Assembly: GCA_024405395.1 (NCBI GenBank)
Contig: JAKSOW010000012.1
Location: 1-44,330, forward strand
Length of the DNA stretch: 44,330 nt
Source of the DNA: Kiritimatiellia bacterium
GTDB taxonomy: Bacteria > Verrucomicrobiota > Kiritimatiellia > RFP12 > UBA1067
Reading direction: 5' to 3'
Part shown: positions 12,378 through 15,951 of the stretch, in pieces
How positions within the stretch are numbered: position 1 is the stretch's first letter
How the letters are laid out: every line of letters begins with the position of its first letter
Program-made: the position numbers and the translations under genes
Notes under the pieces: generated by a model
The model's input: only the letters and a program-made list of their open reading frames with translations
What the model was told of the DNA's origin: nothing
The model's database searches: none

Positions 12378-12483
12378 GGTTTCTCGTTCTGGGGATCGTC
12401 CATTTTCTAGCGGCAATATGCTTCTGTCGTGGCCGTTGTTGGGTGCTGTCCGAGACGCGTCGGATTCTGGGGCAACCGTCCGT

Positions 12484-12836
12484 ACTTTCGCGAAGAGGCG
12501 TGCCGCACGCCCGTCGCACCGCGCCGCAGATTGACATCTGGCGGCGGGTGCGCCGAACGCACGGCCCGACTCTTCGCGTTAGTCAGGTCGGCTGCGGCCC
12601 CAGTATCCGCCGCACTTGCACTGGGGCTGCTTCCCGGAAGCGGGGCCCTGCGGCTTACCCAGGAGAGCGGAGGAGCCGCAGGCGCGTGCGGCGCGCCTTC
12701 ACGCACGGGAGACTCGGCGGAATACCGCCTTCGCCTCCCGCACGCGAAATCGCTTGCCCGCCCCTGCGTCTCTCCTGCCTACCTGGGACGCCTTGAGCCC
12801 CGCCCCCGTGAAGGGTTTCGCGTTTGCGGCCCGCAA
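12484..12836. ncRNA. candidate structured RNA or hairpin array
   Basis: Consecutive complementary arms cover most of this GC-rich stretch. An outer stem (12484-12497 with 12570-12583: ACT, a 2x2 mismatch, then nine perfect pairs CGCGAAGAG) encloses a 13-base palindrome (12498-12510) and a 16-bp hairpin with two bulges and a TGAC loop (12515-12552). Next come CCCCAGT/ACTGGGG (12598-12604, 12620-12626), GCTTCC-C-GGAAGC (12629-12641), CCTGCGGCT/AGCCGCAGG (12647-12655, 12674-12682), and a nested pair (12706-12711 with 12735-12740, enclosing 12716-12720 with 12725-12729), itself inside CGCGTG/CACGCG (12683-12688, 12741-12746). Weaker stems are at 12766-12791 and 12824-12836. I cannot match it to RNase P RNA, tmRNA or a riboswitch. 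The strand is unknown, and single-stranded DNA function is also possible. Confidence 0.4.
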
Positions 12837-12904
12837 GGGTGCGTCTTTGGGCACAACTCTGGCCTATGGGCCCGCTCCCCAATCCATCAATGAGACTTCA
12901 TTTT

Positions 12905-12980
12905 TATTACGCAACATAATCTCACTATGTCTGAAAAGAGGTTGAGGGCATGTAAGATTATTACGCATTAAAATCTCATC
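12905..12980. repeat. AT-rich direct repeat pair, 54 bases apart
   Basis: The copies at 12905-12926 and 12959-12980 share TATTACGCA and, a few bases on, AATCTCA (about 17 of 22 bases, with a small shift). They sit between the hairpin region and the murG promoter. They look like operator half-sites or promoter repeats; a regulator is not identified. Confidence 0.5.
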
Positions 12981-13120
12981 GCAACGAAAGGAACCGACAA
13001 ATGCTAGATTTTTGTCTATTCCGCACACAAAGTCGGCCATTTGCGCGAAGCGGTGGGGCGCGGACGGACAGGCACAGCACGTCAGGCCGCTACAACGGTT
13101 CATTCGTAGCCCCCGTTGGA

Positions 13121-13149
13121 TTGCCATGCAGTTCGGATTGTGGTATAAT
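13121..13149 (+). promoter_or_regulatory. murG operon promoter
   Basis: TTGCCA (13121-13126), an exact 17-base spacer and an extended -10 TGGTATAAT (TATAAT 13144-13149). Transcription would start near 13156, giving a ~40-nt leader with GGAGGA before the ATG at 13196. Confidence 0.7.
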
Positions 13150-13195: not shown

Positions 13196-14299
13196 ATGAG
13201 CCTTTCGGAAACTCGGTCTGGGCTGATGATGGAAAAGAAAAAGATTGTTGTGGCATGTGGCGGCACGGGCGGGCATGCCTTTCCGGGTCTGGCAGTCGCA
13301 CGTGAGCTGTTGGACCGCGGGCATGACGTCGTGGTGTGGGATTCCGGCCGCATGGTGGAAAGCGATGTGATGCGGGCGTGGTCGAACAAGACCTTCTCCA
13401 CTGGCGCCAAGCAGCTGTCCCCCAAGAATGTGTTCGCCAATCTGTTCTCTTTCATGCGATGCTGGCGCGAGATCCGGCGTTTCCGTCCGGATGTGCTGCT
13501 GGCCATGGGATCCTATTCGTCCCTGCCGCCTGTGCTTGCCGCCAAGATCTCAGGGGTGCCTGTTGTCCTGCATGAGGCCAACACCATTCCTGGCCGTGCG
13601 GTTGACATGTTGTCGCGTTTCGCGAAGACGGTTGCCATTGCCTTTGCCGTCACCAAGGACCACCTTCATGGCCGCCCCACTGAACTGGTGGGGCTGCCGG
13701 TTCGGGCCGGCATCGAGAAGGGGACTCGTTTCGCCGAGATTCCGGCAGATTCCTTCTGCGTATTCATTACCGGCGGCAGCCAGGGCGCGCATCGGGTCAA
13801 TGAGCTGGTCACGGCGGCGATGCCGCTGGTCAAGACGGCGCTTGACCAGGCCGGCAAGAAGCTGTATGTCATCCACCAGACGGGCCTCAAGGATGAAGGC
13901 CCAGTGATGGGGCGCTACGTCGCCGCCGGCATTCCTTCGCGGGTCAATGCCTTCGAGCATGAGATGCCGCGGGCGTTCGCCTCGGCTGACCTCGTCATTG
14001 CCCGTGCGGGGGCTTCCACCTGCTTTGAGCTGGCGCGTGTGGGCAAGCCCGCCTTCCTGATTCCGCTGCCCTCCGCCCTGCGCAACCATCAGCATTTCAA
14101 TGCCGAGGCCTTTGTGGCCGCCGGCGCTGCGGCCGAAGGGCGTCAGGACGACCTCACGCCGCGGGCTTTGGCGAACTACATCCTGGACAAGGTCGCGCAT
14201 CCCGCCAAGCTTGCGCAGATGGCCGAGCGGATGCGGCTCATGGCCACGCCGGACGCCGCCGGCAAGGTGGCCGACCTCGTTGAACGCTGCGCCAAGTGA
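13196..14299 (+). CDS. murG: UDP-GlcNAc:lipid-PP-MurNAc-pentapeptide GlcNAc transferase MurG
   Basis: This 367-aa GT28 glycosyltransferase makes lipid II from lipid I on the inner face of the cytoplasmic membrane. All the key motifs are visible: the N-terminal GGTGGHAFPGLA loop, GSYSSLPPVLAA, the HEANTIPGRA helix, GGSQGAHRVN, and ARAGASTCFEL with NHQHFNA in the donor domain. The start at 13196 has GGAGGA about 8 nt upstream; ATGs at 13226/13229 are alternatives, and an in-frame extension to 13001 is unlikely because the promoter lies inside it. The gene is outside the usual dcw cluster as far as this window shows. It overlaps the exosortase gene by 4 nt and leads an envelope operon. Confidence 0.92.
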   Translation: MSLSETRSGLMMEKKKIVVACGGTGGHAFPGLAVARELLDRGHDVVVWDSGRMVESDVMRAWSNKTFSTGAKQLSPKNVFANLFSFMRCWREIRRFRPDVLLAMGSYSSLPPVLAAKISGVPVVLHEANTIPGRAVDMLSRFAKTVAIAFAVTKDHLHGRPTELVGLPVRAGIEKGTRFAEIPADSFCVFITGGSQGAHRVNELVTAAMPLVKTALDQAGKKLYVIHQTGLKDEGPVMGRYVAAGIPSRVNAFEHEMPRAFASADLVIARAGASTCFELARVGKPAFLIPLPSALRNHQHFNAEAFVAAGAAAEGRQDDLTPRALANYILDKVAHPAKLAQMAERMRLMATPDAAGKVADLVERCAK

Positions 14300-15951
14300 C
14301 GATGCCCATGCCCAAGAATTTCCAGATAGGCCGTCTTGCGCTCTTTGCCGCCACTTTGGCGACGATGTGCTGGGGCTTTTCGGGGATGTTCCTGCGTGCG
14401 GCTCAGGTGTTCAGCTACGAGCGTGAGGACATGTCGTTCGGCTGGTATGTGCCGCTGTTCTCGCTCTATGTTCTCTGGACCGAACGGGAACAGCTGAAGA
14501 GGGCGTTGGGCGCGCCTTCGATTTGGGGACTGGTGGTCTCCATTCCGTTTCTTGCGCTGGCATTGCTGGGCACGCGCGGGCTTCAGCTGCGCTTCGAGCA
14601 GTTGGGTTTCATTGGCCTGTGCGTGACGGTGCCTTGGGCGTTTTTCGGCAGGCAGGTCGCCAAGCGCTGCCTTTTCCCCGCCGCCTACCTGCTGTTCACG
14701 ATTCCTGTCTCCTCATTCCTGGACTTCTTCACCATCCATCTGCGCCTGCTGGCGAGTGGCACGGCCCTGGGTGTCCTGAAGGGGTTCGGCTTCGAGGTGG
14801 TTCAGAAGGGCACCGCCATCATCTGCGAACAGGGCACGCATCCGTTCTCGATTGACGTGGCCGAACCCTGTTCGGGGCTGCGGAGTTTCTTTGCGCTGAC
14901 GGCACTGACGGCCGCGTATGCCTACTACAGCCAGCCCACCTGGACGCGGCGGGCGCTGCTTTTCCTCTGTGCGGGGCCGCTCGCCGTTCTGGGCAATGTG
15001 ATGCGCGTGCTCACGATCTGCCTGGTGGCGGCGTACGCGGATCCGGATTTCGCGCTCGGCTTCTACCACGACTATTCGGGCTATGTGGTGTTCATCGTGG
15101 CCATCTCGGCGATGGTGGCGGTGGGTGAGGGCATCAGCCGCCTGGCCGCCAGCAAGGCCTTCGGCAAGCTGGCGAGACCCCAGAAGGCCGCCGAGGTGCC
15201 GGCCGACAAGGTTGAGGTGTCGGGCGGTTCCTTGTCGTGGCGCGCGTGGCTCGTGCCTGGCCTGGCGACTTTGGCGCTGTCTGCTCTTTTCGTTTTCCAG
15301 GCTCAGACGCCGATGGGCATGATCATGTCGGCGCCCGAGGTCGAATTGCCGGAGGCCCTGGGCGGGGCGCGCGGAGAGGATGTGCGATATTGCCAGAATG
15401 AGCAGTGCGGGCGCTTCTTTGTGCTCTCGCAGCTGACGCCCCCCGGCACCACCTGCCCCACGTGTGGTGGTGAGCTGGACGGCGTTTCATTGGGCGAGCA
15501 TCGCATTCTGCCGCCGGATACGCAGTTCCGTCGGCGGATGTACCGTTCGACTTCAGGGGCCGAGTTTCTGGTGTCGGCCATCATCGGCGGTGAGACGAAG
15601 AACTCAATCCACCGACCCGAACTCTGCCTGCCGGCACAAGGGTATCTGCTGGGGCATCCGCACGATTTCATGGTGGGGGATCGGCCGTTCCATGCCGTTG
15701 AGATGACGCCGCCCGGCGGTGTGCCGGGCACGCTCGTCTACACGTTCTTCAATCAGGACGGCGTTCGCACGGCTTCGCATCTGGCGCGCATCCTGCGTGA
15801 CGTGTGGGACCGTTCCTTCCACAATCGCGTGGATCGCTGGGTGATGGTCACAGTCCATGCTGGGTCGCCACACGGCTTCTCGCGGCGTAGCCTGGCGGGC
15901 AGGGCCGAGTTGGATGCCTTTCTCCTGAAGCTTTCGGAGGGCCTCAAATGA
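14296..15951 (+). CDS. exosortase fused to zinc ribbon and EpsI-like domain
   Basis: The 551-aa membrane protein has two parts. Residues ~1-290 form an eight-or-so-helix exosortase with the expected catalytic residues: Cys192 in AEPCSGLRSF, Arg237 in GNVMRVL and His258 in YHDYSGYVVF. After another hydrophobic segment (~315-335), a Cys4 zinc-ribbon-like insert (C366, C371, C387, C390) precedes an EpsI-like tail with the SIHRPELCLPAQG signature. Exosortases cut and anchor PEP-CTERM-type proteins, usually together with exopolysaccharide export; EpsI is normally a partner. The start is GTG at 14296 (4-nt overlap with murG) or ATG at 14302. No sorting-signal substrate was found among the proteins here. 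The Cys4 insert is unusual. Confidence 0.85.
   Translation: MTMPMPKNFQIGRLALFAATLATMCWGFSGMFLRAAQVFSYEREDMSFGWYVPLFSLYVLWTEREQLKRALGAPSIWGLVVSIPFLALALLGTRGLQLRFEQLGFIGLCVTVPWAFFGRQVAKRCLFPAAYLLFTIPVSSFLDFFTIHLRLLASGTALGVLKGFGFEVVQKGTAIICEQGTHPFSIDVAEPCSGLRSFFALTALTAAYAYYSQPTWTRRALLFLCAGPLAVLGNVMRVLTICLVAAYADPDFALGFYHDYSGYVVFIVAISAMVAVGEGISRLAASKAFGKLARPQKAAEVPADKVEVSGGSLSWRAWLVPGLATLALSALFVFQAQTPMGMIMSAPEVELPEALGGARGEDVRYCQNEQCGRFFVLSQLTPPGTTCPTCGGELDGVSLGEHRILPPDTQFRRRMYRSTSGAEFLVSAIIGGETKNSIHRPELCLPAQGYLLGHPHDFMVGDRPFHAVEMTPPGGVPGTLVYTFFNQDGVRTASHLARILRDVWDRSFHNRVDRWVMVTVHAGSPHGFSRRSLAGRAELDAFLLKLSEGLK

What the first reader, a model, noticed from the sequence alone, without database searches (positions are those of the whole stretch)
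12484..12836. Chain of nested hairpins: possible undescribed structured RNA or DNA element
In ~350 bases there are at least nine complementary arm pairs, several perfect at 7-9 bp and one 16-bp hairpin with two single bulges inside a closing stem. The flanking genes (Crp-type regulator, murG) do not explain it and no reading frame looks coding. It does not match RNase P, tmRNA or known riboswitches as far as I can judge by eye.
Basis: partly seen in the sequence, partly recalled or inferred. Interest (0 to 1): 0.65.

Follow-up and report, generated by a model that had tools for sequence, protein, structure and literature searches.

The report
Mobile element with outward hairpin RNAs
The hairpin chain is one arm of an uncatalogued, apparently non-coding repeat that has spread through genomes of one family of uncultured bacteria, and its two arms keep the same elaborate fold, read outward from the middle, while the letters change, which points to a mobile element carrying selected structured RNAs.

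Summary
The hairpins are real and far beyond chance (folding z -9.3 on the minus strand, -5.1 on plus). Relatives occur in six more genomes of the same family (three genera in all), and were not found elsewhere in the class or in a phylum sample.

Complete copies have two homologous arms in inverted orientation around a centre. Each arm holds a ~95-nt hairpin (A) and a ~185-nt rod (B) with an invariant GGTATTCCG tip. Compensatory change conserves the fold: in B, 27 of 31 pairs change on both sides; covariation score 0.672 against 0.188 +/- 0.015 shuffled. In all 14 arms tested the better-folding strand reads outward.

No relative is in Rfam, plasmid, phage or viral collections. Best reading: a non-autonomous, inverted-repeat-bounded mobile element moved in trans, whose arms are templates for two divergent structured RNAs. 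Dispersal and conserved structure are shown; transcription, the mobilising enzyme and the RNA's job are inferred.

The parts
12443..13081 (.). whole element copy: complete left arm, centre, truncated right arm (limits approximate to about 10 bases)
   Evidence: similarity to the other copies covers 12424-13098 in pieces; ends set at the shared GTGCTGT...ACAGCAC inverted termini
12443..12462 (+). left terminal sequence GTGCTGTCCGAGACGCGTCG, shared with many copies
12488..12581 (-). hairpin A, about 95 nt, 14 of 36 consensus pairs with changes on both sides
12594..12630 (-). small hairpin / linker with conserved GGTGCAAGTGCGGC-like core
12631..12813 (-). rod-like hairpin B, about 185 nt
12671..12774 (-). 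apical part of hairpin B modelled as R2 (92.4 bits)
12716..12729 (-). tip of B, GGCGGTATTCCGCC on the minus strand; GGTATTCCG invariant in the 13-sequence alignment A3
12870..13010 (.). A+T-richer centre with two copies of TTATTACGCA...AATCTCA (12904-12924, 12958-12978); weak promoter-like match on the minus strand 12984-12957
13011..13081 (+). remnant of the right arm and right terminal sequence (GGACAGGCACAGCAC); hairpins A and B of this arm are deleted here
   Evidence: matches the right arms of C71 and C248
11640..12377 (+). flanking gene, Crp-type regulator (context, not part)
13229..14299 (+). flanking gene murG (context, not part); promoter-like site 13121-13149 lies just outside the element

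Best explanation
A lineage-restricted, apparently non-coding mobile element, bounded by terminal inverted repeats and most likely moved in trans by an enzyme encoded elsewhere. A complete copy consists of two homologous but diverged arms in inverted orientation around a centre. Each arm is a template for a roughly 350-400 nt structured RNA (hairpin A plus rod B) read from the centre outward through the element's end. The window copy has a whole left arm and a deleted right arm. SHOWN: dispersal, inverted two-arm anatomy, structure conserved by compensatory change, strand polarity of the fold. INFERRED: that the outward strand is transcribed, that the RNA rather than single-stranded DNA is the selected molecule, that the invariant tip is a docking site for a protein or nucleic-acid partner, and that the RNA serves the element's own spread.
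For: Dispersal: 12 clear matches in the own genome, three at 99% over 353 bases beside unrelated genes; further end pieces bring it to about 21 contig sites, 14 at contig ends. The G042 right arm is 94% identical to one in G049 that lies beside a different gene. Anatomy: six two-armed loci in three genomes all have B on - then +. Structure: A3 covariation 0.588 vs 0.197 +/- 0.022; A1 0.320 vs 0.120 +/- 0.022; A4 0.672 vs 0.188 +/- 0.015 with 28 distinct rows, slid controls 0.05-0.15. Polarity: outward strand has the lower z in 14 of 14 arms; R2 matches only the outward strand in 29 of 29. Non-coding: no Pfam match; arms about 270-400 bases apart in resolved copies.
Against: No transcript data. 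No exact empty site or target-site duplication was found. No mobilising enzyme was identified. A strand-neutral count of G.U against A.C cells is inconclusive (20:12 cells, p 0.22; hairpin A shows no preference), so polarity rests mainly on B and on whole-arm folding. Only some copies are complete, because the repeats break the assemblies.
Confidence: 0.6

Rival explanations
1. The fold is selected as DNA: the arms are long foldback ends of a DNA transposon or a replicating single-stranded form, recognised as hairpins by a nuclease or transposase.
For: Terminal inverted repeats, two inverted arms, internally deleted copies such as C260. In each arm the favoured strand is the one whose 3' end is the element terminus, which a 3'-end foldback mechanism would also give. 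G.T pairs are tolerated in DNA too.
Against: Internal loops and an invariant tip are conserved inside very long stems, more than simple palindromes need. An element moved as one strand should favour the same DNA strand at both ends, but the favoured strand switches between arms.
Confidence: 0.27
2. A cis-acting RNA: the element is dispersed and the hairpins act on neighbouring transcripts, for instance as RNA-processing, stability or insulator signals, as proposed for NEMIS and ERIC repeats.
For: Copies lie between genes; Neisserial and Yersinia repeats are reported to work this way (PMC2229807).
Against: Neighbouring genes are unrelated; the better fold is on the strand initiated inside the element, not on the strand read through from neighbours; no T-tract terminator was found.
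Confidence: 0.1
3. A single-locus riboswitch or housekeeping ncRNA between the Crp gene and murG.
For: None beyond the structure itself.
Against: Many copies beside unrelated genes; no structured element upstream of murG in the same-genus genome G001, where R1 and R2 find nothing; no Rfam match.
Confidence: 0.01
4. Chance structure of G+C-rich DNA.
For: The region is about 70% G+C.
Against: z -9.26, none of 100 shuffles; covariation far above shuffled and slid controls.
Confidence: 0.01

Closest known systems
Bacterial MITEs with structured transcripts (Correia/NEMIS, ERIC, YPAL, RUP; reviewed in PMC2229807)
   Same: Dispersed, intergenic, apparently non-coding, terminal inverted repeats, strongly base-paired transcripts predicted.
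   Different: Those are about 100-200 bp and essentially one stem-loop; this is about 0.6-1.2 kb, with two inverted arms, each carrying a multi-hairpin fold kept by compensatory change and polarised outward.
CIR elements of Caulobacter and Brucella (PMC2229807)
   Same: Dispersed repeats whose predicted RNA has two long arms joined by a linker.
   Different: CIR units are about 110 bp and carry GANTC sites; here each of two inverted halves holds its own multi-hairpin set.
Transposon-encoded guide-like RNAs: omega/re RNAs of IscB and TnpB (HEARO), bridge RNAs of IS110 (PMC11208160)
   Same: A structured RNA belonging to a mobile element and reaching its end.
   Different: No nuclease or recombinase gene in any resolved copy, two RNAs rather than one, no match to HEARO or another Rfam model. 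The likeness is recalled, not tested at the level of mechanism.
Large ornate RNAs ROOL, GOLLD, OLE (PMC12286853)
   Same: Large structured RNAs; ROOL is named for its rumen origin.
   Different: No Rfam match; here the RNA units are rods in an inverted-repeat dispersed element.

Membership tests
MITE (non-autonomous DNA transposon) | many near-identical copies beside unrelated genes | tested here: met
MITE (non-autonomous DNA transposon) | terminal inverted repeats | tested here: met
   GTGCTGT... termini and, in one subfamily, GATAATGTGGCAAAGTCTGGGATG at copies facing both ways; imperfect in the window copy
MITE (non-autonomous DNA transposon) | target-site duplication | tested here: inconclusive
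   no exact empty site; a 34-base direct repeat at 94% flanks the G056 copy but its meaning is unclear
MITE (non-autonomous DNA transposon) | no transposase gene inside | tested here: met
   no Pfam match in the window copy; short centres in resolved copies; unresolved copies could hide one
MITE (non-autonomous DNA transposon) | related autonomous element with the same ends | tested here: inconclusive
   copies with the outer repeat mostly end at contig ends
Known Rfam ncRNA families, including HEARO, group II intron, RNase P, tmRNA, ROOL, GOLLD | score at or above the family's gathering threshold | tested here: not met
   weak-threshold searches give only two sub-threshold plant-type miRNA hairpins in the window and nothing in two relatives
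RNA-guided transposon RNA (omega RNA, bridge RNA) | RNA made and bound by an element-encoded nuclease or recombinase | not testable with these tools
   no such gene in resolved copies; no RNA data

The most novel reading that the evidence does not exclude
A new class of mobile element in which a central region drives two divergent, homologous structured RNAs that run out through both termini and form an RNA-protein complex needed for the element's own mobilisation.
Probability: 0.15. Interest if true: 0.88.

Novelty: new variant of a known kind. Interest (0 to 1): 0.62.

Why it matters
Bacterial MITEs are usually seen as passive remnants of transposons. Here a dispersed element keeps an elaborate, polarised RNA-like fold across three genera while most letters change, so the fold is doing something for the element or its hosts. 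If outward RNAs are made, this is a large uncatalogued RNA family tied to mobility, with an invariant tip that makes the binding partner findable by pull-down. It also matters practically: these repeats break assemblies of the host genomes.

Tried and rejected
Rfam at gathering and at weak thresholds: no family. Plasmids, phages: none. Viral contigs: 17-base tip matches only, with no further similarity around them, taken as chance. Genome contigs pattern scan: true relatives in RUG12478, UBA1731 and S32M_St_metabat_107; L121 (Abditibacteriaceae) and L126 (Isosphaeraceae) match the tip only and were set aside; L116 (a Verrucomicrobia MAG) is a doubtful tip-only match. Coding explanation: four frames across the element without Pfam match. 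Empty-site search at murG in G001 and others, and at epmA in genus g14: gene order differs, no clean empty site. Strand-neutral G.U versus A.C count: inconclusive. Papers: no description found with the terms tried.

Full report
CHECK OF THE OBSERVATION. Window 12484-12836 folds at -195.9 kcal/mol on the plus strand (z -5.13) and -233.1 on the minus strand (z -9.26); none of 100 dinucleotide shuffles does as well on either strand. The minus strand forms hairpin A (12488-12581), a small hairpin (about 12594-12630) and a long rod B (about 12631-12813). No Rfam family matches at its gathering score. Four open frames across the region match no Pfam family, while the neighbours are a Crp-type regulator and MurG.

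IT IS A DISPERSED REPEAT. A search of the own genome gives the window copy, two others at 99% over 353 bases (C248, C79) and nine more at 73-84%. The similarity runs from about 12424 to 13098. With the end pieces found later I count about 21 contig sites, 14 of which run into a contig end, as expected of a repeat that breaks the assembly. Flanking genes differ from copy to copy.

ANATOMY. The copy on C71 and those in relatives show that a full element has two arms in inverted orientation. The arms within one element are homologous but diverged. In G027 the left arm of one copy matches the right arm of another at 77% and the reverse pair at 95%. Six loci in three genomes contain both B hairpins, and in all six the left one lies on the minus strand and the right one on the plus strand. 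The centre is short; no gene was seen in it. The window copy keeps the left arm and centre, while its right arm is reduced to about 70 bases (13011-13081).

ENDS. Most copies start with GTGCTGTCCGAG or a near relative. One subfamily in the own genome has a further outer repeat, GATAATGTGGCAAAGTCTGGGATG, found at copies facing both ways. C260 is an internally deleted copy holding little more than two ends. Exact target duplications could not be shown. A 34-base direct repeat (94%) flanks the G056 copy; I do not interpret it.

MOBILITY. The G042:C334 right arm is 94% identical to that of G049:C411, yet the first lies upstream of a phosphatidylserine decarboxylase-like gene and the second beside an unrelated gene, read by eye as a GH28-like glycosidase. 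This, and near-identical copies at unrelated places in the own genome, is the evidence for movement. Gene order around murG and epmA differs among relatives, so no clean empty site was obtained.

CONSERVED STRUCTURE. Hairpin A, seven sequences: 14 of 36 pairs with changes on both sides, covariation score 0.320 against 0.120 +/- 0.022 shuffled. Apical B, 13 sequences: 25 of 31 pairs, 0.588 against 0.197 +/- 0.022. Apical B, 28 distinct sequences aligned to the model and including seven hits in G042, G049 and G013 that were not used to build it: 27 of 31 pairs, 0.672 against 0.188 +/- 0.015, with slid controls at 0.05-0.15. A4 was fitted to the model, so it leans towards the structure; A3 was aligned without it. 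The tip GGTATTCCG and a GCG segment are invariant in A3.

POLARITY. In 14 of 14 arms from six genomes the strand reading outward from the centre has the lower folding z after composition control. The B model matched only the outward strand in 29 of 29 cases. Because relatives are not independent, the nominal sign-test value (1e-4) overstates the case. A strand-neutral count of G.U against A.C cells is inconclusive and shows no preference in hairpin A. I take polarity as real but the step from polarity to transcription as inference.

DISTRIBUTION. R2 finds the element in 7 of 346 genomes of the class, all in one family and three genera, and in 388 genomes drawn from the phylum only in the own genome and G013, which is of the same family. 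The same-genus genome G001 has none. Named relatives include RUG12478 and Verrucomicrobia bacterium UBA1731, so the host is placed in Verrucomicrobiota sensu lato; a finer placement was not tested. Patchy presence fits a mobile element. Plasmid, phage and viral collections gave nothing.

HOW IT MOST LIKELY WORKS. An enzyme acting in trans on the terminal repeats moves the element. Transcription starting near the centre would produce two divergent RNAs, each folding into A and B and ending near the terminus. The invariant tip of B and the conserved internal loops are the likely contacts for a protein or a nucleic-acid partner. Only dispersal, anatomy, covariation and strand polarity are demonstrated.

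COMPARISON. Bacterial MITEs share dispersal, terminal repeats and stable predicted transcripts, but are described as about 100-200 bp (PMC2229807). CIR elements have two RNA arms joined by a linker in about 110 bp (same source). I found no described element with two long inverted arms of this kind, but subscription journals are mostly absent from the library and only a few term sets were tried.

Noticed in passing
L022 2435-2766 (G056) and L017 about 160-188: A different long palindromic dispersed repeat containing GAACGCAGATGC...GCATACGCAGAT lies near the G056 copy, and a piece of it lies next to the C256 copy in the own genome.
   Followed up: no
L022 1422-1455 and 1982-2015: A 34-base direct repeat (94%) flanks the G056 element; the first copy is the 3' end of a gene. 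Possibly an unusually long target duplication.
   Followed up: no
window 13121-13149, and L009/L010/L018 beyond the right end: In four copies a TATAAT-like promoter of the next gene lies roughly 50-90 bases outside the right end; in three of them an AAAATGGGNAAACTCCAGG-like stretch lies between, also seen beside a G042 copy (L177 near 1010).
   Followed up: partly
window 14296-15951: The protein downstream of murG carries a stretch (AEPCSGLRSF) that recalls exosortases; recalled by eye, not tested.
   Followed up: no
L057 1030-1105 and L022 about 1920-1950: The centres of the G027 and G056 elements contain GGACAGACCCC / GGGGACAGTCCCC palindromes that look like a separate small repeat inserted there.
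   Followed up: no
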